Origin: Pirellulales bacterium | GTDB taxonomy: Bacteria; Planctomycetota; Planctomycetia; Pirellulales; Lacipirellulaceae | Assembly: GCA_028279215.1 (NCBI GenBank) | Contig: JANQOF010000063.1 | Location: 1-64,000, forward strand | Reading direction: 5' to 3' | Length of the DNA: 64,000 nt | Part shown: positions 34,328 through 64,000 of the stretch, piece after piece | How positions within the stretch are numbered: position 1 is the first letter of the stretch | Layout of the letters: every line of letters starts with the position of its first letter | Translations under genes and position numbers: made by a program | Notes under the pieces: generated by a model | The model's database searches: none | What the model saw: only the letters and a program-made list of their open reading frames with translations | What the model was told of the DNA's origin: nothing

Positions 34328-36243
34328 ATGATTCGCCGCTGGCTCTGCTGCCAAGCCACTCTACTGGCAGCCACGATTGCCCCATTTGCTGCTGGACAAG
34401 TCCTGGACGTCTCCACGCTAACCAAGTACTTGGATCCGCTGCCCATTCCTGAACCAATACAGTCTACGGGAATGCTGGACGGCGTGCCGCTGTATGAGGT
34501 GTCGGTTTCGCAGTTCACGCAGCAGTTGCACAGCCAGATTCCGGCTACCACCTTGTGGGGCTACAACGGGAGTTTTCCCGGCCCGACCTTTGAGGTGAAT
34601 CGCGACGAAACGATCAAGGTCCGCTGGACGAACGACTTGTCCAATCAGCGGGAACGGCTTTAGATCACATCCTGCCGTACGACAATACCATTCACGGTGC
34701 AGCGGCGATGTTCCCCGAGGCGCGCATGGTGCCACACTTGCATGGTGCCGTTACCGACGAGGCAAGCGACGGCTTTCCTGAGTGGTGGGTGTCGCCCGAT
34801 GCCAACGCGCCAGGCAATATTTTTGGCGGGCCCGCCGGCAACAGCATCCTGACCACCTACACCAACAACCAACGCGCTGCGGGCAATTGGTACCACGATC
34901 ATTCGATGGGCATCACGCGACTTAACGTCTACGCCGGAATGGCAGGGCTGTACAACATTCGAGATTCGGAGGAAGCGGCGCTTGGCCTCCCGTCGGGCGA
35001 CTATGAAATCCCGCTGGTACTGCAAGACCGTTCGTTTTACGAAAACGGCGACCTGTTCTATCCAAGAGGTCCAGGTGATCTGTTTGACCCGGGTGGCGAC
35101 GACCCGCTCGGGAACATCGACGAGAGTTTTCCGGACGACGAGTCCCAGGTGAGTCGTTTTGTTGCCGACGCCAACTTGGTGAACGGCAAAGTATGGCCCT
35201 ATCTGGAGGTGGAACCTCGCAAGTATCGTTTCCGGTTACTCAACGGTGCGAACACTCGTTCTTATGATCTAACGCTCGAGCCGCAGCCGGGTGCCGCGAG
35301 CACCGATCCGATTCCGTTCTACCAAATCGGCACCGATAGCGGATTGCTCACCACTACGTCGCAGCGAGACTCTGTTGCCATTTCGCCGGCCGATCGAGTG
35401 GACACCGTCGTTGACTTCTCGAGCTTCGACGTCGGCGATACGATCTTGCTCCGGAACAACGATTTCGAAGCGACTAACGGCACCACAGACCAGGTGATGG
35501 AAATTCGCGTAGTCGAGTCGACAGACCCCGACACGAGCAGTCTGCCGACGCAGCTGTCAACCTTCGATCGCTACCAGGAACAGGACGCCGTTCGAACCCG
35601 CACGCTCACGCTCGACATGACGATAGACCAGTATGGCCGACCAGAACTCTTGTTAGATGGTAAGAAGTGGACCGATCCCAACACCGAGACGGTCGTGCTT
35701 GGCGAAATGGAAATCTGGGAGTTTGTGAACAACACGGGAATGTCTCATCCAATGCACTTGCATATGGATGCATTTCAAGTGCTCGATAGGAGAGACCGGA
35801 ACGGCAACGTTGTACCGTTGGAAGACTACGAACTAGGTTTTGAAGACACGGTAACGGTAGGGGGGCGTGAGACGGTGCGCATTATGGTGCAATTCAACCA
35901 GTACACCGGCACGTTCGTGTGGCACTGTCACATTCTGGAACATGAAGACCTCGAGATGATGCGAACGTTCCGTATTGTGTCGCCAGGCGACTACGACCAG
36001 GACGGCGATGTCGACACCAACGACTATGATCTGTGGAAGAACACATTTGGAACCACCGGCGAAGACCTGGCTGCGGATGGCAATAACGATGGTGTGGTTA
36101 ACCTAGCCGACTACACCGTGTGGCGCGACCATCTCACTGGGCCTTCTGGCGCCCTGACATCGCTCCAGGTACCCGAGCCCACCACCTTGGTGCCGGCGCT
36201 AGCGGGTATGCTAGGTGCGGTTTGCTGGCGAAAGCGGGCGTAA
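34328..36243 (+). pseudogene. Multicopper oxidase (CotA/laccase-like) with dockerin-like and PEP-CTERM tail, interrupted by a single-nucleotide frameshift near 34647
   Basis: ORF 34328-34663 encodes signal peptide and first cupredoxin part (...WGYNGSFPGPTFEVNRDETIKVRWTNDLSNQ|RERL*). The +1 frame continues GTALDHILPYDNTIHGAAAMFPEARMVPHLHG into ORF 34708-36243 with HLHG, WYHDHSMG, HPMHLHMD, HCHILEHEDLEMM copper motifs, then 'GDYDQDGDVDTNDYDLWKN...DGNNDGVVNLADYTVWRDH' and 'VPEPTTLVPALAGMLGAVCWRKRA'. Confidence 0.85.
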
Positions 36244-47522: not shown

Positions 47523-48587
47523 GTGATTCAGTCATTGACCCAGTTATTTCGACGACCGCCAACAGACCAATGCACGCCGCCCACTGTCGAAGATTTTAGA
47601 ATCGTACTGGGACGGGAACGCGACCGATCGGACCGCACTCAAGCTCCGGTGTCGCTAGTGTCGTTGGATTACAACCAATCGCCGGAAGTCAAACACTTGA
47701 TGCCCACAACCGTCGCGTTTCTTCGCGGGCGCCTGCGATCGACCGACGATTTTGGCCTGCTCGACACGAATCGGCTCGGAATCGTATTGCCAGCGACTGA
47801 TTCTATGGGCGCGTGGACCGTGGCATTAGACGTATGCGGCGCAATTGAGTGCTTACCGCGGCAACTGAACTGCGAGGTGTTTGAGTATCCAGATCCAAGT
47901 GACTTCGATGGCGACTCGATCGACAATCTAGACATGAACGACGGGATCCCGAGCCCCTCACGACCACTGGCCGAACTCTTTTGCAGACCGATGCCTCTTT
48001 GGAAACGTGGCGTCGATGTGTTTGGCGCGGGGATCGGTTTGTTGCTATGCGGTCCGCTTTTCTGTCTGGTCGCGATTGCGATTAAGGCGACGTCCAAGGG
48101 ACCTGTGTTCTTCCGCCAGACGCGGAGCGGATTGGGCCGTAAGCCATTCATAATGTACAAGTTTCGGACAATGGTCGTGGATGCCGAGCAACGGCAAGCT
48201 GCTCTGCGAGACGACAGCGACCAAGACGGCCCGGCCTTCAAGCTACAAAACGACCCACGAATCACGAGTATCGGGCACTTGCTGCGTAAGACCAGCATCG
48301 ACGAATTGCCCCAACTGTGGAATGTGCTTTGCGGGCAAATGTCGCTGGTCGGACCGCGACCGCTGCCATGCTCCGAAACCGACGCCTGCGAATCGTGGCA
48401 CCATCGCAGGCTCGACACCACGCCCGGACTCACCTGTATTTGGCAGGTATCGCGTCACTCGTTCATACATTTCGACGACTGGATGCGGATGGACGTTCGC
48501 TATGTTCGTTCACAAACCCCAGTGAACGACGCAAAGCTGTTGGCGCGAACCATTCCGGCCGTCGTCATGCGACGTGGGGCCCACTAA
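47523..48587 (+). CDS. Bacterial sugar transferase (WbaP/PssY-type initiating transferase) with N-terminal GGDEF-like region
   Basis: C-terminal 'KRGVDVFGAGIGLLLCGPLFCLVAIAIKATSKGPVFFRQTRSGLGRKPFIMYKFRTMVVDAE...LRKTSIDELPQLWNVLCGQMSLVGPRPLP'; N-terminal region has GGDEF-fold-like pattern. Confidence 0.93.
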   Translation: MIQSLTQLFRRPPTDQCTPPTVEDFRIVLGRERDRSDRTQAPVSLVSLDYNQSPEVKHLMPTTVAFLRGRLRSTDDFGLLDTNRLGIVLPATDSMGAWTVALDVCGAIECLPRQLNCEVFEYPDPSDFDGDSIDNLDMNDGIPSPSRPLAELFCRPMPLWKRGVDVFGAGIGLLLCGPLFCLVAIAIKATSKGPVFFRQTRSGLGRKPFIMYKFRTMVVDAEQRQAALRDDSDQDGPAFKLQNDPRITSIGHLLRKTSIDELPQLWNVLCGQMSLVGPRPLPCSETDACESWHHRRLDTTPGLTCIWQVSRHSFIHFDDWMRMDVRYVRSQTPVNDAKLLARTIPAVVMRRGAH

Positions 48588-50171: not shown

Positions 50172-51518
50172 ATGATACAGGCCTCTGCTGCACCGTACCC
50201 GACCACTGCCCACGAGCCAAGAATCTGGCTCGATTGGCTGGTGCCGGCATTGGTGATCGCATATCTGACCATGAGCCGCACTTTTGCCCACATTGGCATT
50301 GGTCCGCTTTACGTGGGAGAAATCGCTTTGGGGGCAATACTCATCGCGGCGCCGCAGGCAATCGTTCGTCCCTGGCTGCAGGCGTGTGCCCGTCGCTCTC
50401 CCTTCAGCAACGTTGCGTTGTGGATGTACGTGTTCATTGCGTATGGCGCCATCCAAGCCGTGCGCGGCGTGATGAATGGCTATAACCCAATGATTGCGCT
50501 GCAGAACTTGGTTTTCCACGTCTATCCGCTCTTCTTCTTCGTCGGCGTCTGGGTAGGTGTTCGGCATCCAAACATGTTGCCCAAGCTGATCCGCGTGCTG
50601 GCGTGGATCCATGGAGTTTACGGTTTGCTCTTTGTCTGCTTGCTCTCGCCGATGGGACTTGGTGAGCTATCCGAGGGTGAAGATCCCGTAATGGGTTACA
50701 TCGGCTGGTTCGGGAATCCATCTGGCGCGGCACTCGTGCTACTGGGTCTGCTATGCTTCGAACGCAACCTAACGCGAGTCTGGATCCCACTCTTACTAAA
50801 CGTATTTGTACTCATCGCCATGATGGTGCGAGCGTCGTGGATTGGCTTCGCCTTGGCGGTGTCCACATGGGCGATTCTCTCGGGCCGAACAATGCAGGCG
50901 TTCAAGATCGCCACGTTGGTTGCCGTAGTGCTGCTCATTGGTTGCGCTCTTGATGTACGACTGCCTGGGCCTCAAGGGGGTGAGAAGTATATTGCGGCTC
51001 GTGAAGTCGTCGGACGGATTGTGGCCATTGTGAATCCCGAACTTGCCGCAGACTTCACTGAGAATGCAGCATTTCACGCGGGAACGCTGGACTGGCGAAC
51101 CACTTGGTGGACCAGCATTGTGGACAACGTCCACGAGCGTTCCGACTGGACTTGGTTTGGCCCAGGCTATGGTTACCCAATTTGGGACTTGCCACCGGTC
51201 GCCGAACAGATGAAAGGCCGGGCGATGCGTACTCCCCACAATATCTTCGTCCATTGCCTTGGTTACACAGGTTGGGTCGGAGTAATGGTATTCGTTGTAT
51301 TCCTGCTAGCCCTGTTTGTATTGATGTGGACAGTCTATCAGCAGACCGGTCAACCATTTGGCATCTGCTACCTCGTACTGATCCTTTTTTGGGCCACGTT
51401 TGACGATATCCTGGAGGCTCCTTATCGCGCCATTCCCTTCTACCTTCTCCTCGGGCTCGCCGCGGCACCGATCAAGAACTTGATGGACTCGCGTCGTGAA
51501 CAACAGGAGCATCCATGA
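50172..51518 (+). CDS. O-antigen ligase / Wzy-type polymerase family membrane protein
   Basis: Polytopic protein with large periplasmic loop 'DWTWFGPGYGYPIWDLPPVAEQMKGRAMRTPHNIFVHCLGYTGWVGV' (H-N motif). Confidence 0.85.
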   Translation: MIQASAAPYPTTAHEPRIWLDWLVPALVIAYLTMSRTFAHIGIGPLYVGEIALGAILIAAPQAIVRPWLQACARRSPFSNVALWMYVFIAYGAIQAVRGVMNGYNPMIALQNLVFHVYPLFFFVGVWVGVRHPNMLPKLIRVLAWIHGVYGLLFVCLLSPMGLGELSEGEDPVMGYIGWFGNPSGAALVLLGLLCFERNLTRVWIPLLLNVFVLIAMMVRASWIGFALAVSTWAILSGRTMQAFKIATLVAVVLLIGCALDVRLPGPQGGEKYIAAREVVGRIVAIVNPELAADFTENAAFHAGTLDWRTTWWTSIVDNVHERSDWTWFGPGYGYPIWDLPPVAEQMKGRAMRTPHNIFVHCLGYTGWVGVMVFVVFLLALFVLMWTVYQQTGQPFGICYLVLILFWATFDDILEAPYRAIPFYLLLGLAAAPIKNLMDSRREQQEHP

Positions 51519-53575: not shown

Positions 53576-54709
53576 ATGAACACACAGGCACTACCAGAAA
53601 TGACGGCCGAAGATGTCGTCGCTACCGACCTTGATTACATGCTGGACGCTTTGCAGCACGAGTTGACCCAAATGGCGGGGACCAGCGTTCTGATGACCGG
53701 CGGCGCGGGCTTTCTTGGTCACTACCTAATTCAGGTGATCCTGGCGTGGAACGATCGCGTCGACGCAACGCAGCAGATCGCACTGACCGTATTCGACAAC
53801 TACGCCCGTGGCGTGCCCGCATGGCTCGAGAATTTGCGTGACCATCCGCAATTGAAGCTCGAGAAGTACGATATCATCGAGCCTTTGCCGGAAAACATGC
53901 CCGACTTCCAGTACATCATTCACGCCGCCGGCATCGCCTCGCCACGCTACTACCGCGAACATCCTTTGGAAACGATGGATGCGAACATCTCGGGCCTCCG
54001 GTCGCTTCTCGAGTACGCTCGAAATCAAAAAGAAAATGGGAAGCCGTTCCACAGTTTCTTGTTCTTCTCCAGCAGCGAGATCTACGGCGACCCGGATGCA
54101 AGCCATATCCCAACCGCGGAGACCTATCGAGGCAACGTGTCGTGCACCGGCCCTCGTGCGTGCTACGACGAATCGAAACGCTATGGAGAAACACTGTGCG
54201 TGGTGTTCGCTCAGCAGTACAACGTGCCTGTTAAGGTAGCTCGCCCGTTCAATAACTACGGCCCGGGCCTGAAGATCAGCGACCGCCGCGTACTGCCCGA
54301 CTTTGCCCGCGATGTGCTGGCGGGCGAATCAATCGTGATGCTCTCCGACGGCGCGCCTAGCCGCACGTTCTGCTATGCCGCCGACGCGATTGTTGGTTAC
54401 TTGAAAGTACTCGTCCGCGGCGGTGCAGGCGAAGCGTACAACATCGGCATTGAGGAACCGGAAATCTCGATCGCCAACTTGGCCAAGCTCGTAGTACAAA
54501 CAGGCCGTGAACTATTTGACTACGAGGGCGAAGTGGTGTTCAAGAAGAGCGACGAGCGAGACTACTTGGTCGACAATCCCCAGCGTCGCTGTCCCAACAT
54601 CGACAAAGCGCGTCGCGAGTTGGATTACCACCCGTCGATTGGCCTGGAAGAAGGGGTCAAGCGGTCGTTGATTTGGTACAGCTCGAACTCCGAGGCGGAG
54701 GATTCCTGA
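53576..54709 (+). CDS. NAD-dependent epimerase/dehydratase (UDP-glucuronate decarboxylase-like SDR)
   Basis: 'VLMTGGAGFLGHYLIQVIL', 'SSSEIYGDP', 'YDESKRYGETL', 'RPFNNYGPGL'. Confidence 0.92.
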   Translation: MNTQALPEMTAEDVVATDLDYMLDALQHELTQMAGTSVLMTGGAGFLGHYLIQVILAWNDRVDATQQIALTVFDNYARGVPAWLENLRDHPQLKLEKYDIIEPLPENMPDFQYIIHAAGIASPRYYREHPLETMDANISGLRSLLEYARNQKENGKPFHSFLFFSSSEIYGDPDASHIPTAETYRGNVSCTGPRACYDESKRYGETLCVVFAQQYNVPVKVARPFNNYGPGLKISDRRVLPDFARDVLAGESIVMLSDGAPSRTFCYAADAIVGYLKVLVRGGAGEAYNIGIEEPEISIANLAKLVVQTGRELFDYEGEVVFKKSDERDYLVDNPQRRCPNIDKARRELDYHPSIGLEEGVKRSLIWYSSNSEAEDS

Positions 54710-56046
54710 TGCGAGTATCGATTATCGGAACAGGCTACGTCGGCTTGATCACGGGCGTTTGCTTGGCCGAAAAAGGTCACCACGTGGTCTGCGTCGACGT
54801 CGACTCCGACAAGGTCGCGCAGATTAATCGTGGCATTCCACCGATCTACGAACAAGACCTCGAACCGCTCCTCGAGAGAAACGTCGGTAGTCATTTTGCT
54901 GCAACCACCGACCTTGAGAAAGCGGTTCTGGAGACTGAGTTGACACTAATAGCCGTTGGCACACCATTCGACGGCGAGCAAATCGACCTGCAATACGTCA
55001 AGAACGTAGCGGCCCAAATCGGCGAGACCCTGTCGCAGAAAGACGAGTACCACATGGTGATCGTCAAGAGCACGGTTGTGCCGGGTACGACCGAAAAGGT
55101 CGTGATGCCGATCGTCGCCGAGACGTCCGGCAAAACGCCAGGCAAGGACTTCGGCGTGGGCGTGAATCCCGAATTTCTAAGTGAAGGCGTAGCCGTTTAC
55201 GACTTTATGAACCCCGATCGACTGGTGCTCGGCAGCTACGACCAGCGAGGTTTGGCGTTGCTAGAAGAACTCTATGCGGCGTTTCCGGAGGTGCCGCGGG
55301 TCAAGGTGAATTTGGGCACGGCCGAGATGATCAAGTACGCTTCGAACTCCGTGCTGGCTACGTTGATCTCTTTCTCCAACGAGATTGGCAACCTCTGTTC
55401 AACGTTGGGCGGAATCGACGTAGTCGACGTAATGCGAGGCCTGCATCTCTCGCAATACCTTAGCCCCGTGGTAGAACCGGTAGGCCGTGTCACCGCTCCC
55501 ATTACCGCGTTCCTTGGCGCCGGGTGTGGCTACGGGGGTAGTTGTCTGCCCAAGGACGTGCAAGCGCTCGTGCACCACGGCGAAGTGGCTGGTCAACCGA
55601 TGCCACTGCTGCGAGCGGTGACCTCGATCAACGACGCCCAGACAAAACAAATGGTCGGGCTGCTGAAAAAGCACTTTGACTCATTAGCCGATGTGAAAGT
55701 CGCTGTATTGGGGCTGGCATTCAAGCCAGGCACCGACGACATGCGGCAGTCGCCCTCGATCAAGTTGATACGACACTTGGTCGACCAAAAGGCCCTGGTA
55801 ACCGCGTACGATCCAATCGTCAATGGCAACGCACGCGACGTGCTCGATCGTCCGAACGTGAACCTCGCCGGTAACCTGGAAACCGCAGTGGCTAATGCCG
55901 ATGCGTTGATGCTGGTTACCGCGTGGGACGAGTTTCGCCAAGTACCCGAAATGGTCGTGTCGCGAACCCCTCAACCAGTTTGCATCGATGGTCGGCGGAT
56001 GTGGTCGCCTCGACTGCTGCTGCGGTACGAAGGAATTGGAATCTAG
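54709..56046 (+). CDS. UDP-glucose/GDP-mannose dehydrogenase family protein
   Basis: 'MRVSIIGTGYVGLITGVCLAEKGHHVVCVDVD', 'FLGAGCGYGGSCLPKDVQAL', 'LGLAFKPGTDDMRQSPSI'; TGATG overlap with the upstream gene. Confidence 0.95.
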   Translation: MRVSIIGTGYVGLITGVCLAEKGHHVVCVDVDSDKVAQINRGIPPIYEQDLEPLLERNVGSHFAATTDLEKAVLETELTLIAVGTPFDGEQIDLQYVKNVAAQIGETLSQKDEYHMVIVKSTVVPGTTEKVVMPIVAETSGKTPGKDFGVGVNPEFLSEGVAVYDFMNPDRLVLGSYDQRGLALLEELYAAFPEVPRVKVNLGTAEMIKYASNSVLATLISFSNEIGNLCSTLGGIDVVDVMRGLHLSQYLSPVVEPVGRVTAPITAFLGAGCGYGGSCLPKDVQALVHHGEVAGQPMPLLRAVTSINDAQTKQMVGLLKKHFDSLADVKVAVLGLAFKPGTDDMRQSPSIKLIRHLVDQKALVTAYDPIVNGNARDVLDRPNVNLAGNLETAVANADALMLVTAWDEFRQVPEMVVSRTPQPVCIDGRRMWSPRLLLRYEGIGI

Positions 56047-56049
56047 CGG

Positions 56050-56616
56050 ATGAAATTCAAGGAAACACAACTGCCTGGCGGATTCGTTCTTGAAATCGAA
56101 CGGCGTGGCGACGACCGAGGCTATTTTGCTCGCGCCTGGTGCCAAACCGAACTCGCCGCGTACGGGCTCGACCCAACTGCTGTGCAGGCCAACGTTGGAT
56201 TCAGCCAGCGACGTGGAACGCTACGCGGCATGCATTTTCAACGAGCCCCGCATGCCGAAGTGAAGATCGTCCGCTGCACTCGGGGAGCCGTGTTCGACGT
56301 AATGATCGACTTGCGGCCCAACTCGCCAGCCGAAGGGCAATGGGTTGGAGTCGAGTTGACCGCGGAGAATGGCAAGTTGCTCTACATCCCCGAAGGCTTC
56401 GCCCACGGTTACCAAACCCTCACCGACGAAGCGGAGATTCACTACATGACCTCGAAGGCCTACGCGCCTGACGCGGCAGCCGGGGTCCGTTACAACGATC
56501 CAGCCTTCAACATCGCATGGCCGCTTGAGGTTGCGTCGATCTCCGACGCCGATCGCAGCTGGCCAGACTACGGCACTTCGCTCAAGGACGAATCCATCAA
56601 GGAGATGCAATTATGA
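56050..56616 (+). CDS. dTDP-4-dehydrorhamnose 3,5-epimerase family protein (RmlC-like)
   Basis: 'VQANVGFSQRRGTLRGMHFQRAPHAEVKIVRCTRGAVFDVMIDLRPNSP...LLYIPEGFAHGYQTLTDEAEIHYMTSKAYAPDAAAGVRYNDPAFNIAWP'. Confidence 0.93.
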   Translation: MKFKETQLPGGFVLEIERRGDDRGYFARAWCQTELAAYGLDPTAVQANVGFSQRRGTLRGMHFQRAPHAEVKIVRCTRGAVFDVMIDLRPNSPAEGQWVGVELTAENGKLLYIPEGFAHGYQTLTDEAEIHYMTSKAYAPDAAAGVRYNDPAFNIAWPLEVASISDADRSWPDYGTSLKDESIKEMQL

Positions 56617-57956
56617 TTATCGTCGACACCGCGCTGCGGAAACGCGAGGCGCTGGACCAGCCGATTCGGGTGGGCCTAGTTGGCGTAGGCTACATGGGCC
56701 GTGGGATCGCCCAACAATTGCTGACGCCGCTCCGCGGAATCCGGCTGGTGGCCATGTCGAATCGAACGCTCTCCCGGTGCGAACGAGTGCTTGCGGACGC
56801 GGGCGTCGAATCGCCGCTCCACGTTTCCAACTCCAGCCGCCTCGAAGATGCGATCGAAACGGGCAATCTCGCCATCACCGATGACCCGATGCTGCTCTGC
56901 GAGGCCGAGAACATCGACCTATTGATCGAGTCGACAGGCAACGTGGAGTTTGGGGCACAGTTTTCCACCAAGGCAATCGATCATGGCAAACATCTCGTGT
57001 TGGTGAACGCCGAGCTCGATGCAGTGGTCGGCCCGATCTTGAAAGCTCGAGCCGAACGCGCCGGCGTTGTACTGACGAATACCGATGGCGACGAGCCTGG
57101 CGTCGCCATGAATCTTCTACGGTTCGTCGACACCATCGGCTACCGCCCCGTGATGGCGGGTAACATCAAGGGCTTCTACGACCCGCATCGAAACCCTGAC
57201 ACCCAGCGCGGCTTCGCCGAAGAGGTGAATCAAAACGTTCATATGATTACGTCGTTTGCCGATGGCACCAAGTTGTCAATGGAAACGACTCTGTTGGCGA
57301 ACGCGGCGGGACTCGGCGTGCTCAAGCGAGGGATGCATGGTCACCGTTGCGAACACGTGAAGGACATTCTGGATCACTTCTCGCCTGATGAGCTCTTAAA
57401 CCAGGGCGCCGTGGAGTTTGTACTTGGCGCCGAGCCAGGTACGGGGGCCTTTGTCGTGGGCTACAACGAAGACCCCATCAAACAAGAGTATATGCAGTAC
57501 TTCAAAATGGGAGACGGTCCTTTGTATTTGTTCTATACGCCATACCACCTTCCTCAAGTGCAAGTGGCCGTCACGATAGGCCGGGCGGCGCTCTTTCACG
57601 ATGCGGCGGTCACACCAATCGGTCGTCCCATGTGCGACGTGGTCACCATGGCCAAGCGGAACCTGAAGGCGGGCCAAACACTCGACGGCATTGGTGGGTT
57701 CGACGCGTACGGCACGATCGAAAACGCGGATATCAGCCAGGCCAACGAACTCTTGCCGATGAGCCTGTCTGCCGACTGCCGGTTAACCCGCGATGTGGCA
57801 CAAGACGAGCCAATTAGCTACGCCGATGTGACTTTGCCTGCCAATCGCTTGTGCGACCAGTTACGTGCAGAGCAGAACGAGCACTTTTTCCCTTTCCCTT
57901 CCAACGGAAGTGACGCCGAGTGGTCGATGTCAACTCCCACAGCATCTACAAAGTGA
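56613..57956 (+). CDS. NAD(P)-dependent oxidoreductase with C-terminal SAF-like domain (homoserine-dehydrogenase-like / StrU-like)
   Basis: 'IRVGLVGVGYMGRGIAQQLL', 'VLTNTDGDEPGVAMNLLRFVDTIGYRPVMAGNIKGFYDPHRNP', C-terminal 'AKRNLKAGQTLDGIGGFDAYGTIENADIS...LPMSLSADCRLTRDVAQDEPISYADVTLP'. Confidence 0.85.
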   Translation: MIIVDTALRKREALDQPIRVGLVGVGYMGRGIAQQLLTPLRGIRLVAMSNRTLSRCERVLADAGVESPLHVSNSSRLEDAIETGNLAITDDPMLLCEAENIDLLIESTGNVEFGAQFSTKAIDHGKHLVLVNAELDAVVGPILKARAERAGVVLTNTDGDEPGVAMNLLRFVDTIGYRPVMAGNIKGFYDPHRNPDTQRGFAEEVNQNVHMITSFADGTKLSMETTLLANAAGLGVLKRGMHGHRCEHVKDILDHFSPDELLNQGAVEFVLGAEPGTGAFVVGYNEDPIKQEYMQYFKMGDGPLYLFYTPYHLPQVQVAVTIGRAALFHDAAVTPIGRPMCDVVTMAKRNLKAGQTLDGIGGFDAYGTIENADISQANELLPMSLSADCRLTRDVAQDEPISYADVTLPANRLCDQLRAEQNEHFFPFPSNGSDAEWSMSTPTASTK

Positions 57957-57963
57957 GACGATC

Positions 57964-58824
57964 ATGAAGGTGGTACTCTTCTGTGGCGGATTCGGCATGC
58001 GGATGCGCGAGTACTCCGAAGCCATCCCCAAACCGATGGTTTCCATCGGTCACCGGCCCATCCTATGGCACGTGATGAAGTACTACGCCCACTACGGGCA
58101 CACCGATTTCATTCTTTGCCTTGGCTGGAAGAGCCAAGTCGTGAAAGACTACTTTCTGCGGTACGACGAGTGCGTATCGAACGACTTCGTGCTCTCCTCA
58201 GGAGGGACTCGAATCGACCTATTGAACAGCGATATTGACGATTGGACGATTACGTTCGTCGATACGGGGGCGAAGTCAAACATCGGTCAGCGCCTCAAAG
58301 CGGTCGAACCGCACTTGCGGGGCGAAGAGACCTTTTTGGCCAACTACACCGATGGCCTGACCGATATGAATCTGCCGGATCTCATCGACTTTCACGACCA
58401 GCAAGCTGCCGTCGCGACTTTCCTGAGCGTTCCACCACAGCAAAGTTTCCACACGGTGAACGTATCCGACGACGGCTATGTCGAGAGCGTGTGTGCGATC
58501 AACCGGTCGGGAGTCTGGATGAATGGTGGTTTCTTCGTACTACAGAACGAGATATTCGATCACATGCGGGCGGGCGAAGAGCTAGTCGTCGAACCATTCG
58601 CGCGGCTGGTCGAACAACGACGACTGGCCACCATGAAGCACAACGGCTTCTGGGGCTGCATGGACACCTACAAAGAGAAGCAACTACTGGATGAGATGTA
58701 CGACCAGGGCGACACCCCTTGGGAGGTGTGGCGTAACGATCACGTCGTCGACCCGCTAGAGACGCCAACCGTCGGAGTATTTCGCGCCTCCGAGGTGGCG
58801 CTTCCGGCGAGGAGACTCAAATGA
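57964..58824 (+). CDS. rfbF: Glucose-1-phosphate cytidylyltransferase
   Basis: 'MKVVLFCGGFGMRMREYSEAIPKPMVSIGHRPILWHVMKYYAHYGHTDFILCLGWKSQVVKDYFL...DTGAKSNIGQRLKAVEPHL'; start moved from 57865 to 57964. Confidence 0.93.
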   Translation: MKVVLFCGGFGMRMREYSEAIPKPMVSIGHRPILWHVMKYYAHYGHTDFILCLGWKSQVVKDYFLRYDECVSNDFVLSSGGTRIDLLNSDIDDWTITFVDTGAKSNIGQRLKAVEPHLRGEETFLANYTDGLTDMNLPDLIDFHDQQAAVATFLSVPPQQSFHTVNVSDDGYVESVCAINRSGVWMNGGFFVLQNEIFDHMRAGEELVVEPFARLVEQRRLATMKHNGFWGCMDTYKEKQLLDEMYDQGDTPWEVWRNDHVVDPLETPTVGVFRASEVALPARRLK

Positions 58825-60053: not shown

Positions 60054-60695
60054 ATGATACAGACACGATTCGATGGTCTGAAACGTGTGCTATGCCTTGG
60101 CGCTCACGCCGACGACATTGAAATAGGTTGCGGTGCAACCGTGCTGAAGCTGCTCGACGAGCAGCCGGGCTTGGAAGTCTGTTGGGTGGTACTTGGCAGC
60201 AATGAGATTCGCCGAGAAGAAGCCATTGCAAGCGGAGAATCGTTTTTGGCAAACGCGGGTCGCGGAGAAATCATCGTGAAGGGATTTCACGATAGCTATT
60301 TTCCGTGTCAGTGGGAACCGATAAAGGACTTCTTTCACGAACTATCGTCCCGATTCTCCCCGGACTTGGTCTTCACGCACTATCGAAACGACGCTCATCA
60401 GGATCATCGAGTCTTATCGGAACTCACTGGCTGCGCGTTCCGAAACCACACGGTGATGGAATACGAGATTCCAAAATACGATGGTGACCTCGGACAGCCC
60501 AACGTCTATGCCCCAGTAAGCCGAGAGACGGCGCAAAAGAAAATCGACATGACGCTCGGTGCCTTCAAGTCGCAGCTCGACAAACCTTGGTTCACCGAAG
60601 ATACGCTGCGGGCGCTGCTTCGCCTGCGGGGAATCGAGTGTAACTCGCCAAGTGGCTTTGCCGAAGCGTTTCACGGTCGCAAGATATCTATTTGA
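60054..60695 (+). CDS. PIG-L/LmbE family deacetylase
   Basis: 'VLCLGAHADDIEIGCGATVLKL', 'DLVFTHYRNDAHQDHRVLSELTGCAFR'. Confidence 0.93.
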   Translation: MIQTRFDGLKRVLCLGAHADDIEIGCGATVLKLLDEQPGLEVCWVVLGSNEIRREEAIASGESFLANAGRGEIIVKGFHDSYFPCQWEPIKDFFHELSSRFSPDLVFTHYRNDAHQDHRVLSELTGCAFRNHTVMEYEIPKYDGDLGQPNVYAPVSRETAQKKIDMTLGAFKSQLDKPWFTEDTLRALLRLRGIECNSPSGFAEAFHGRKISI

Positions 60696-61885
60696 AGCTC
60701 ATTCGCATGACGTTGACCTTGGAAGAACCAACGACGGCTCGGCCAGCAACGGATGCACCGCCGCCGGCGCGAACCAAGCTATTGGCCATCCTGCAACTTC
60801 CGCCACCGGTGCACGGTGCCGCGGTGATCAATCAGCAAGTTGTCAAATCGGCTGCCATCGGCGACAAGTTTGACATCGACGTGCTGCCGATTCAGGCGGC
60901 CAACGCAATCTCCGACGTGGGTCGCTTTCGAGTTGCCAAGGTGTGGAAGGGCGTCTCTCAGATAGCTCATTTGCTATCGACCCTCATCCGCCGACGGCCC
61001 GACATGGCTTACTACGTGCTGGCGTCGCCAACAGGGTTGTCGTTCTATCGCGATGTACTGTCAGTGGCCTTATTGAGGTGCTTTCGAACGCGCGTGGTTT
61101 ACCATCTGCATAGCAAAGGTTTCAAACAGGCTGCGTCAAGCTCACGCTATCGTCGACTGTACCGTTGGCTATTTCAAGACAGCGACGTCATCCTGCTGTC
61201 ACGATTGTTGTATGACGACGTCCAACCGTTTGTACCGGGGAAGCGCTGCCGCTATTTGCCCAATGGAATCCCCGCGCCCGCACAGGCACCCACCCGTGGC
61301 GACATCGAAACGAGTGACGATTGCATTCGCCTGCTCTATCTTTCGAACATGATCTACGAAAAGGGACCGATTGTATTCGCTCAGGCGCTGGCGACTCTAA
61401 AGCGGCGAGGCGTGCCGTTCAAAGCCGTATTTGCGGGAGCGGCAAACTCCGAAGAGTGCCAAGCAGAGTTTCAGTCCATCCTCGATAACCACGACTTGAG
61501 GGACGACGTTTCGTACGTCGGGCCCCGATACGGTGAAGACAAAACGAAGCTGTACACGCAAAGCGACGTGCTCGTGTTTCCGACTTTCTATCCCTTGGAG
61601 TGCTTTCCTGTCGTCGTCCTCGAAGCGATGAGCAACGGATTAGCCGTTGTGTCGACTCGCGAGGGCGCCATTTCGGAGATCGTGGACGACGGAGTAACGG
61701 GATTGCTGACCGAGACGTACGACTCAGAAGACCTGGCCAACAAGCTCGAGCGCCTGATTCGCGATCGGGACTTGCAGCGGTCGATGGGGCAGGCGGGACT
61801 GCGCAAGTTCCACCAGCAGTACACCATCGAGCGATTTGAGCGCGGCATGGCGCAAACGCTGTTGGAATGTTCGCGCCGCGGATAA
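60692..61885 (+). CDS. Family 4 glycosyltransferase
   Basis: 'LLAILQLPPPVHGAAVINQQVV...VLVFPTFYPLECFPVVVLEAMSNGLAVVSTREGAISEIVDDGVTGLL'; 4-nt overlap with the upstream gene. Confidence 0.93.
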   Translation: MKLIRMTLTLEEPTTARPATDAPPPARTKLLAILQLPPPVHGAAVINQQVVKSAAIGDKFDIDVLPIQAANAISDVGRFRVAKVWKGVSQIAHLLSTLIRRRPDMAYYVLASPTGLSFYRDVLSVALLRCFRTRVVYHLHSKGFKQAASSSRYRRLYRWLFQDSDVILLSRLLYDDVQPFVPGKRCRYLPNGIPAPAQAPTRGDIETSDDCIRLLYLSNMIYEKGPIVFAQALATLKRRGVPFKAVFAGAANSEECQAEFQSILDNHDLRDDVSYVGPRYGEDKTKLYTQSDVLVFPTFYPLECFPVVVLEAMSNGLAVVSTREGAISEIVDDGVTGLLTETYDSEDLANKLERLIRDRDLQRSMGQAGLRKFHQQYTIERFERGMAQTLLECSRRG

Positions 61886-61910: not shown

Positions 61911-64000
61911 TCACAATTCTTCAGGCAGTTCCGCAAACGCTGCTTCCAGAGCCTCATCGTTTTTCGATTCGCCGTCCAGTTCGCTCAAGCCGCCGTTCGC
62001 CAACGACAGGCTTGTGTCGTCTTCAACGGGCTCATCGGATGCCAAGACCAGATCTGCAAGCTCCGCTTCGATTGCGTCGGCGGATGTATCGGTAGCGGAG
62101 TCGTCATCTGCAACCAATCCCGTGCCAGAACTTGTAGTGGTCGCGGTCAGCCCGGGCAGGCCAAACGCCAGGCTGAGGTTGCTCGCCGTGCTGGATTCAT
62201 CGATCGTCAGGAGCCTAGCATCGGCCCAGTCTGCGTGATCGTAACTTAGCCCATCTCCACCATCGGTTACGACCAGCCGAAGATCGCTGCCGCCAGCCAC
62301 ATTGACATCGACGGATGAGGTTGCGGATGAACCGGTCACGACACCGCTGTCGTAAACCTGCAGTCCGTCGAGCCACACTTCAAACGTAACCTGGCCAAGG
62401 TTCCCAACTTCGTCGTCCACGCCCACATCGGAAACGAAACGGTCGTACTGTCCCTGCAGGTCGAACACGATCTCGGATGCGGAATGAACTCCAAGACCTT
62501 TCGCATAGGTCGTGCCATTGAGCGTCAGCATGTTTCCGTCGGTGCTGCCCTGTTCACCATTGCTGCGGTCTCTCTCCACGGGCCCCCACCCGTTGATCGG
62601 GGTACCTACGAAGGGCAGATCGCTAAGGTAGGTTTGCGTGAAGCTCCCCACCCCCTGAATCGTAATGGTCAACGTAGCGGAATCGACGCCTCCGTTGCCA
62701 TCGGCGATCGCATAACTAAACACGTCGGTGGCCGTTTCGCCGCTAACCAAGGTCTGCACCACCGCATTGGTGTTGTCGAGCGTATAAGCATAGCCTCCAG
62801 CGGTGCTCCAATCGAGCGTACCGAAAACACCCACCACGGCGACCGCTGCGTCGGTTTCGCCGTTCACCGAGGCGACGGTAAGGAGATCTTCGTCAGGATC
62901 GCTGTCGTTCTGAAGCAAGTCACCCGTTGCTGGCGCGATGTCGCCCTCGGTCACCGAGTTGACATCGTCCACCGCCTCTGGCGCGAAGTTAACGCTTGCA
63001 AGACTTACCAGCTTGGCATCTGCCCAGTTGGCATGGTCGTAGGCGAGGCCATCGCCACCGTCGGTGACGACCAACCTCAGTAGAGTGCCGCCCGCAACGC
63101 TTACCCCCACAGTTTGCGTTAGAGAGGAACCAGTCATGACGCCACTATCGAAAATCTGCACGCCATCGAGCCATACTTCGAACGTTACTTGGCCAAGGTT
63201 TCCAACTTCGTCATCAACTCCAATGTCGGCGACGAACTGATCGAATTGCTCTTGGAGGTCAAACACCAATTCCGATGCGGAGTGAACGCCGAAACCCTTT
63301 GTGTAGGTCGTGCCTTCGAGCGTTAGCGTGTTGCCGTCCGCCGGGCCGTTCTCGCCGTTGCTCCTGTCGCGTTCCACCGGCCCGAAACCATTGACGGGCG
63401 GAGAGGCAAACGGCCAATCGCTTAGATACACCGACTCGGTGTTGTCCACTCCTTGGATAGTAACCGTCAATGTTGAAGTGTCCGTACCACCATTTCCGTC
63501 GGCAATGGTGTAGTCGAATACATCCGTCAACACCTCTCCCAAACCTAAGGCCAAGACGACGGGATTGTTATTGTCGACTCGATAGATGTAAGTTCCTGAA
63601 CCGTCCCAGTCGAGTGTGCCGTAGGCACCGGCCACATTGACTTGGTCGTCAGCAGACGCCGCGACCGACTGGATGACCAACAGGTCGTCGTTGGGATCGC
63701 TGTCGTTCACCAGCAGGTCGCCGGCGACCGGATCCGTCTCTCCTTCAGCGATGGAGTTTAAGTCGGCCGCTGCCACCGGCGGTAGATTCGCGGACGGAGA
63801 GGCCAACAACTTGGCGTCCGCCCAATCGGCGTGGTCGTAGCTGGCGCCATCGTCAGCGTCCGTGACGATGAGTCGGAGTTCTGTTCCGCCTGCCACACTT
63901 ACATCGATCGATTCCGTCGGCGACGCGCCGGTAAGTACACCGCTACCATAAACCTGGGTGCCGTCGAGCCACACTTCGAATGTGACAGACCCAAGCCCGT
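61911..64000 (-). CDS. Large surface protein with repeated NPCBM-like and cadherin/VCBS-type domains (C-terminal part, runs off right edge)
   Basis: Repeats of 'GWGPVERDRSNGE...LTLNGTTYAKGLGVHSASEIVFDLQGQYDRFVSDVGVDDEVGNLGQVTFEVWLDG' alternating with 'DDVNSVTEGDIAPATGDLLQNDSDPDEDLLTV...FSYAIADGNGGVDSATLTITI'. Frame open to 64000. Confidence 0.92.
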   Translation of the reverse strand, partial: GLGSVTFEVWLDGTQVYGSGVLTGASPTESIDVSVAGGTELRLIVTDADDGASYDHADWADAKLLASPSANLPPVAAADLNSIAEGETDPVAGDLLVNDSDPNDDLLVIQSVAASADDQVNVAGAYGTLDWDGSGTYIYRVDNNNPVVLALGLGEVLTDVFDYTIADGNGGTDTSTLTVTIQGVDNTESVYLSDWPFASPPVNGFGPVERDRSNGENGPADGNTLTLEGTTYTKGFGVHSASELVFDLQEQFDQFVADIGVDDEVGNLGQVTFEVWLDGVQIFDSGVMTGSSLTQTVGVSVAGGTLLRLVVTDGGDGLAYDHANWADAKLVSLASVNFAPEAVDDVNSVTEGDIAPATGDLLQNDSDPDEDLLTVASVNGETDAAVAVVGVFGTLDWSTAGGYAYTLDNTNAVVQTLVSGETATDVFSYAIADGNGGVDSATLTITIQGVGSFTQTYLSDLPFVGTPINGWGPVERDRSNGEQGSTDGNMLTLNGTTYAKGLGVHSASEIVFDLQGQYDRFVSDVGVDDEVGNLGQVTFEVWLDGLQVYDSGVVTGSSATSSVDVNVAGGSDLRLVVTDGGDGLSYDHADWADARLLTIDESSTASNLSLAFGLPGLTATTTSSGTGLVADDDSATDTSADAIEAELADLVLASDEPVEDDTSLSLANGGLSELDGESKNDEALEAAFAELPEEL

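What the first reader, a model, noticed from the sequence alone, without database searches (positions are those of the whole stretch)
53576..58824. Nucleotide-sugar sub-cluster with RfbF but no CDP-glucose 4,6-dehydratase: SDR - UGD - RmlC-like - SAF oxidoreductase - RfbF
Five tightly packed genes (TGATG or ~4-nt overlaps at several junctions) encode an SDR, a UDP-sugar dehydrogenase, an RmlC-like 3,5-epimerase, a homoserine-dehydrogenase-like NAD(P) oxidoreductase with SAF-like C-terminus, and glucose-1-phosphate cytidylyltransferase. RfbF normally feeds CDP-glucose to an RfbG 4,6-dehydratase, which I cannot see here; the only SDR looks UDP-glucuronate-decarboxylase-like. From memory, the combination CDP-glucose synthase + RmlC-like + unusual oxidoreductase parallels strQ/strX/strU proposed for N-methyl-L-glucosamine in streptomycin clusters, which raises the possibility of an uncharacterised CDP-activated sugar in a planctomycete EPS. 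A PIG-L deacetylase follows at 60054. The pathway assignment is inference.
Basis: partly seen in the sequence, partly recalled or inferred. Interest (0 to 1): 0.68.

Follow-up and report, generated by a model that had tools for sequence, protein, structure and literature searches.

The report
Mix-and-match rare-sugar pathway, pentose version
Five neighbouring genes in a planctomycete appear to build an unusual activated sugar for a surface polysaccharide by a modular route found in many bacterial phyla, ending with an uncharacterised enzyme that resembles one from isoprenoid synthesis; what that last enzyme does is now directly testable.

Summary
In detail: five tightly packed genes (SDR, UGD, RmlC-like, NAD(P) oxidoreductase, RfbF-like) lie in an EPS cluster, with no RfbG in the window or the 95%-complete genome. 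The oxidoreductase is not a homoserine dehydrogenase but a DRL/DXR-II-fold protein ('DLO'; PF21135, model matches 3UPL at TM 0.9). Across 85 loci from many phyla, RmlC-like + DLO is constant (80/85), RfbF usual (66), and one of three '4-ketone generators' accompanies them: RfbG (17), a Cj1427-like C4-dehydrogenase usually with L-2-hydroxyglutarate oxidase (38), or the window's UGD + UXS-like SDR (16). Only one locus has two. So UGD + a decarboxylating SDR probably replace the 'missing' dehydratase. Best reading: NDP (probably CDP)-pentos-4-ulose, epimerised at C3, then reduced by DLO. Rival and most novel reading: DLO is a ring-contracting reductoisomerase, the missing enzyme for dihydrohydroxystreptose; accession arithmetic places DLO1 genes beside that pathway and near strR. 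The window's RfbF is divergent (below family cut-off, conserved lysine lost, always near PIG-L), so CDP-glucose synthesis is not assured.

The parts
53576..54709 (+). UXS-like SDR (extended, 377 aa) with a ~35-aa N-terminal extension conserved in its clade; proposed NDP-glucuronate decarboxylase releasing the 4-keto-pentose
   Evidence: best solved relative human UXS1, keeps (S)SE, YDESK and the Arg; 17 sequences with the same motifs; genome has another UXS-type paralogue at C41 (35%); best plasmid hits only ~37% identical
54709..56046 (+). UDP-glucose 6-dehydrogenase family (UGD); proposed NDP-glucose 6-dehydrogenase
   Evidence: TIGR03026, 401 bits; GYGGSCLPKD catalytic Cys present; second UGD elsewhere in genome (41%)
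56050..56616 (+). RmlC-like 3(,5)-epimerase, the only RmlC homologue found in the genome
   Evidence: His62 and Tyr132 near-invariant in 80+ homologues, matching H60/Y130 of CBU1838 (PMC9095892)
56613..57956 (+). DXR-II-like (DRL) oxidoreductase, 'DLO': Rossmann + DRL catalytic + SAF; proposed terminal NAD(P)H-dependent enzyme
57964..58824 (+). Divergent RfbF-like nucleotidyltransferase; EKP-motif Lys replaced by a hydrophobic residue
58821..60008 (+). GT4 glycosyltransferase, overlaps RfbF by 4 nt; candidate user of the product (inference)
   Evidence: PF00534
60054..60695 (+). PIG-L/LmbE-type deacetylase, present with every RfbF-like gene of this divergent clade
60692..61885 (+). GT4 glycosyltransferase

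Best explanation
The five genes are one version of a widespread modular nucleotide-sugar pathway: (1) activation of a hexose-1-phosphate, by CTP in most loci; (2) a '4-ketone generator'; (3) modification at C3 (and C5 where possible) of the 4-keto sugar by an RmlC-like epimerase; (4) a terminal NAD(P)H-dependent step by the DXR-II-like oxidoreductase (DLO). In the window step 2 is UGD plus the UXS-like SDR: NDP-glucose to NDP-glucuronate to NDP-pentos-4-ulose with loss of CO2, the SDR releasing the ketone as ArnA does rather than reducing it to xylose. RmlC-like then epimerises C3. DLO most likely reduces the C4 ketone, giving an NDP-pentose of the ribo/lyxo series for the EPS. Shown here by sequence: the parts, the co-conservation, the exclusive swapping of generators, absence of RfbG and of a C4-dehydrogenase orthologue from the genome. 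Inferred: the reactions, the nucleotide and the product.
For: 85 loci: RmlC 80, RfbF 66; generators UXS+UGD 16, RfbG 17, C4DH 38, two generators in one locus only (L027, second one on the opposite strand ~9.6 kb away). With 48 representatives under 75% identity, 37 loci have exactly one generator against 20.9 expected, and 1 has two against 8.6 expected. On the DLO tree the generator label changes many times (22 in all, 6-8 forced per type), e.g. L041 RfbG beside L047 UXS at 100/100. C4DH's best solved relative is 6VO6/6VO8, which I know as Cj1427, a C4-dehydrogenase whose NADH is recycled by alpha-ketoglutarate to L-2-hydroxyglutarate (PMC10680097). L-2-HG oxidase occurs in 28 of 38 C4DH loci and 0 of 47 others. 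In that pathway a dehydrogenase, an RmlC-like epimerase and a C4-reductase follow in order; DLO stands in the reductase slot. In L107 and L082, which have DLO but no RmlC detected, a sugar 3-C-methyltransferase is present, and 3-C-methylated 4-ketoses are normally reduced at C4. In L134 canonical RfbF, the same SDR and UGD sit with a 3-C-methyltransferase (best relative MtmC) and an aminotransferase, so SDR+UGD are linked to RfbF and to a 4-ketose-using enzyme. The genome has other UGD and UXS paralogues, so the window pair is extra.
Against: No biochemistry. The window's RfbF-like protein lost the EKP lysine and scores below cut-off, and no other RfbF was found, so the nucleotide may be UDP or another. 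Two UXS-type loci (L042, L066) show no RmlC, though their contigs are cut upstream. A plain reductase does not explain why a DXR-type fold was recruited instead of an SDR, nor the DLO1 gene apparently beside CBU1838. The 85 loci were chosen by DLO similarity and are rich in cyanobacteria.
Confidence: 0.55

Rival explanations
1. Same pathway, but DLO is a reductoisomerase like DXR-II: it moves C2 from C3 to C4 (alpha-ketol ring contraction) and reduces the expelled C3 aldehyde. Products are 3-C-hydroxymethyl furanoses: apiose-like from the window's pentose, dihydrohydroxystreptose (DHHS) from C4DH loci, dihydrostreptose from RfbG loci.
For: Nearest fold and sequence is the DXP reductoisomerase DRL. 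K193, D225, K228, E232, N238 and H323 are kept while two of three fosmidomycin anchors (K191, T229) are lost, as expected if phosphosugar is exchanged for NDP-sugar. PMC9095892 says DHHS needs a C4 oxidase, the double epimerase CBU1838 and an unknown ring-contracting enzyme. The C. burnetii RSA 493 DLO1 NP_820815 works out as CBU_1836 by accession arithmetic (NP_820808 = CBU_1829 from two sorted lists), next to SDR CBU_1837 and CBU1838. S. griseus, which makes streptose, also has a DLO1, at SGR_5914.
Against: A 3-C-methylated substrate (L107, L082) could not give an aldehyde on rearrangement. A pentose route to apiose would not need an epimerase, yet RmlC is kept. Four tested DLO1/DLO2 proteins failed to complement a DXR mutant, which tests another substrate. 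The locus numbers are inferred, not read from a record.
Confidence: 0.3
2. UGD + SDR only make UDP-xylose for another residue of the EPS; RfbF/RmlC/DLO form a separate pathway whose ketone generator lies elsewhere.
For: UXS and UGD families normally make UDP-xylose; the window SDR keeps UXS residues.
Against: The genome already has UGD and a UXS-type paralogue. This SDR clade replaces RfbG or C4DH in 16 loci. No RfbG over cut-off or C4DH orthologue (best 39.6 bits) in the genome. L134 has RfbF-SDR-UGD contiguous.
Confidence: 0.1
3. One reading: a CDP-L-hexosamine route like the one proposed for N-methyl-L-glucosamine (strQ/strX/strU), with PIG-L deacetylating an N-acetyl intermediate.
For: Conserved trio; DLO1 near strR in S. 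griseus by arithmetic; PIG-L with every divergent RfbF.
Confidence: 0.05

Closest known systems
Campylobacter jejuni GDP-heptose pathway Cj1427 (C4-dehydrogenase) / Cj1430 (3,5-epimerase) / C4-reductase (PMC10680097)
   Same: Order of chemistry: 4-ketone, RmlC-like epimerase, terminal reductase. The C4DH-type sister loci have a Cj1427-like enzyme and usually an L-2-HG oxidase
   Different: The terminal enzyme is a DRL-fold protein, not an SDR. The window makes its ketone by UGD + decarboxylase. Activation appears to be CDP, not GDP
DXR-II / DRL (Brucella 3UPL/3UPY) and its sister groups DLO1/DLO2 (PMC3847144)
   Same: Fold, domain order and several catalytic-domain residues
   Different: Two of three fosmidomycin-anchoring residues lost; the orthologues examined lie in nucleotide-sugar clusters
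ArnA/UXS route to UDP-4-keto-pentose (from knowledge)
   Same: UGD plus decarboxylating SDR with SE, YxxxK and Arg motifs
   Different: Distinct SDR clade with N-terminal extension, linked to RmlC-like + DLO
Anabaena HEP island alr2825-alr2831 (PMC4390870)
   Different: C4DH type; product not identified
Streptomycin strQ/strX/strU
   Same: A DLO1 gene appears to lie near strR
   Different: Sequences not available here; product is a hexosamine

Membership tests
DXR-II (DXP reductoisomerase type II) | DRL catalytic domain and overall fold | tested here: met
   PF21135 1e-45; Foldseek 3upl TM 0.89/0.91
DXR-II (DXP reductoisomerase type II) | Fosmidomycin anchors K191, K193, T229 | tested here: not met
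   N184, K186, L221 in the window protein; N184 and K186 invariant in orthologues
DXR-II (DXP reductoisomerase type II) | Makes MEP from DXP | not testable with these tools
   Four DLO1/2 proteins failed complementation in the literature
DLO1 (sister of DXR-II) | Hydrophobic residue at position 229; falls in DLO1 clade | tested here: inconclusive
   L221 fits; position 250 is His in this copy, unlike the hydrophobic residues described; no tree with reference DLO1 sequences was run
Glucose-1-phosphate cytidylyltransferase RfbF | TIGR02623 equivalog cut-off (300 bits) | tested here: not met
   224 bits
Glucose-1-phosphate cytidylyltransferase RfbF | EKP-motif Lys (equivalent of catalytic RmlA K162, by knowledge of the family) | tested here: not met
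   Ile/Val/Met in all 8 members of this clade in the alignment
RmlC-type epimerase | Family score and His/Tyr pair | tested here: met
   174.6 bits > 155.75; H62, Y132
UDP-glucuronate decarboxylase (UXS/ArnA) | (S/T)SE, YxxxK and Arg motifs | tested here: met
   no NCBIfam equivalog over cut-off
CDP-3,6-dideoxyhexose route | RfbG CDP-glucose 4,6-dehydratase | tested here: not met
   None over cut-off in the genome; present in 17 sister loci
Cj1427-type C4-dehydrogenase route | C4-dehydrogenase orthologue | tested here: not met
   Best genome hit 39.6 bits
Streptomycin StrU | Sequence homology to StrU | not testable with these tools
   Only accession arithmetic

The most novel reading that the evidence does not exclude
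DLO enzymes are nucleotide-sugar reductoisomerases, a DXR-like solution to sugar ring contraction, and are the missing enzyme of dihydrohydroxystreptose (and perhaps streptose) biosynthesis. The window would carry a pentose version making an apiose-like branched sugar on CDP, from a protein family unrelated to UDP-apiose synthase.
Probability: 0.3. Interest if true: 0.85.

Novelty: new variant of a known kind. Interest (0 to 1): 0.62.

Why it matters
It gives an uncharacterised enzyme group (DLO) a concrete slot in a pathway spread over many phyla, including the heterocyst envelope island of Anabaena. It shows that three chemically different ketone-makers swap into the same pathway, which predicts the substrate at each step. 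It also offers a named candidate for the open ring-contraction step in dihydrohydroxystreptose biosynthesis. One in-vitro experiment separates the two main readings.

Tried and rejected
MEP-like idea (DLO makes a polyol phosphate that an IspD-like RfbF activates): dropped, because DLO loci carry NDP-sugar 4-ketone generators and RmlC. Homoserine dehydrogenase: only the NAD domain matches. Type-specific residues in RmlC: only one weak column separates the generator types, so substrate cannot be read from it. DLO residues separating types (P314 in UXS type against C; L296 in C4DH type against Y) were noted but do not decide chemistry. A first relatives survey at PF21135 level gave 5 of 118 genomes, showing the gene is sporadic.

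Full report
Observation. The five genes are present as described, tightly packed on the + strand, with small start-site corrections. They sit in an EPS cluster with an initiating sugar transferase (47523-48587, PF02397), a Wzy_C-type ligase/polymerase (50172-51518), a GT2, a WecG/TagA-type transferase and two GT4 enzymes.

The oxidoreductase. 56613-57956 matches PF21135, the catalytic domain of Brucella DRL (1e-45), and solved chains 3UPL/3UPY (E 2e-67). An AlphaFold model (pLDDT 91, pTM 0.88) matches those at TM 0.89/0.91, and the next best listed matches do not exceed 0.50. DRL is DXR-II, a reductoisomerase. Compared with it, the window protein and its orthologues keep K193, D225, K228, E232, N238 and H323 but lose K191 and T229, two of three residues said to anchor fosmidomycin. 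PMC3847144 describes two uncharacterised sister groups, DLO1 and DLO2; four tested members did not complement a DXR mutant. I call the window protein DLO; formal placement in DLO1 was not done.

Conserved neighbourhood. 80 genome loci and five plasmid loci were analysed with the same gene queries. RmlC-like is present in 80 of 85. Among 55 loci with enough flank it is present in 54, and the exception, L082, has a sugar C-methyltransferase instead. RfbF is present in 66. The interesting part is the enzyme that could make a 4-keto sugar: RfbG in 17, a C4-dehydrogenase-like SDR in 38, UXS-like SDR in 16 (all with UGD). Two occur together in one locus only, and there the second is far away on the other strand. 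Label shuffles with 48 representatives under 75% identity expect 8.6 loci with two generators and 20.9 with exactly one; 1 and 37 are seen. On the DLO tree the generator type is clustered but has changed repeatedly. The shuffles ignore relatedness; the tree and the reduced set address that in part.

Why a 4-ketone. The C4-dehydrogenase-like SDR has 6VO6/6VO8 as best solved relative; that this is Cj1427 is my knowledge. Cj1427 oxidises C4 of a GDP-heptose, and its tightly bound NADH is re-oxidised by alpha-ketoglutarate to L-2-hydroxyglutarate (PMC10680097). An L-2-hydroxyglutarate oxidase is found in 28 of 38 such loci and in none of the other 47, which fits disposal of that by-product. The next enzymes in Campylobacter are an RmlC-like epimerase and a C4-reductase. 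DLO occupies the last slot.

The window type. The genome has no RfbG over cut-off, no C4-dehydrogenase orthologue, no other RmlC and no other RfbF. It has another UGD and a second UXS-type SDR with the canonical TSE motif, so the window pair are extra paralogues. The window SDR belongs to a clade with an N-terminal extension, found at 53-72% identity in DLO loci, while the best plasmid UXS hits are ~37%. In another planctomycete (L134) this SDR and UGD follow a canonical RfbF and precede an aminotransferase and a sugar 3-C-methyltransferase closest to the D-mycarose 3-C-methyltransferase 4RV9. A methyltransferase of that family needs a 4-ketone (knowledge), so the SDR probably releases one.

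What DLO does. Plain C4 reduction is favoured by the Campylobacter parallel and by L107 and L082, where a 3-C-methyltransferase is present and no RmlC was found. Ring contraction is favoured by DRL ancestry and by C. burnetii: PMC9095892 states that the C4 oxidase and the ring-contracting enzyme for dihydrohydroxystreptose are unknown, and that CBU1838 is the epimerase. PMC3847144 lists NP_820815 as a DLO1. Since NP_820808 pairs with CBU_1829 in PMC10740251 when its two lists are matched in order, NP_820815 should be CBU_1836 if numbering is continuous, beside SDR CBU_1837. In the same way YP_001827426 is SGR_5914 (SGR_905 = YP_001822417), near strR SGR_5931. These are inferences from numbering. 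I put reduction at about 0.55 and ring contraction at about 0.3.

The RfbF-like protein. It belongs to a small clade (8 sequences, plus L107) that scores below the family cut-off in the window copy, has Ile/Val/Met at the EKP lysine in the 8 aligned, and has a PIG-L deacetylase close by in every case; canonical RfbF loci have PIG-L once in 59. It occupies the activation slot in its loci, but its substrate is open. This is the weakest link in calling the product CDP-activated.

Verdict. An ordinary-looking sugar cassette that turns out to be one version of a modular, widely spread and uncharacterised pathway. New variant of a known kind; the terminal enzyme could be more than that.

Noticed in passing
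57964-58824; L015, L016, L017, L019, L038, L043, L082, L107: A divergent RfbF-like clade lacks the EKP lysine and is linked to a PIG-L deacetylase in every case seen; with canonical RfbF only 1 of 59 loci has PIG-L. Substrate unknown.
   Followed up: partly
L010, L011, L050, L051 and other C4DH loci: L-2-hydroxyglutarate oxidase genes sit in sugar clusters beside a Cj1427-like C4-dehydrogenase, apparently to dispose of L-2-HG made during NADH recycling.
   Followed up: yes
L107 6389-7951; L082 5698-7029; L134 4669-5907: A sugar 3-C-methyltransferase is present in loci where no RmlC was found.
   Followed up: partly
L134 (G205:C1:570000-588000): RfbF-SDR-UGD-class IV aminotransferase-3-C-methyltransferase without DLO: a probable route to a 3-C-methyl (perhaps amino) pentose.
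   Followed up: partly
L135 9286-11553: A 755-aa ORF whose C-terminal half is the same SDR type (45%); the N-terminal half has no Pfam match.
   Followed up: no
61911-63974 (-): Large protein with NPCBM/NEW2, Big_9 and cadherin-like domains at the end of the EPS cluster.
   Followed up: no
34708-36243: Multicopper-oxidase-domain protein with a sub-threshold PEP-CTERM match.
   Followed up: no
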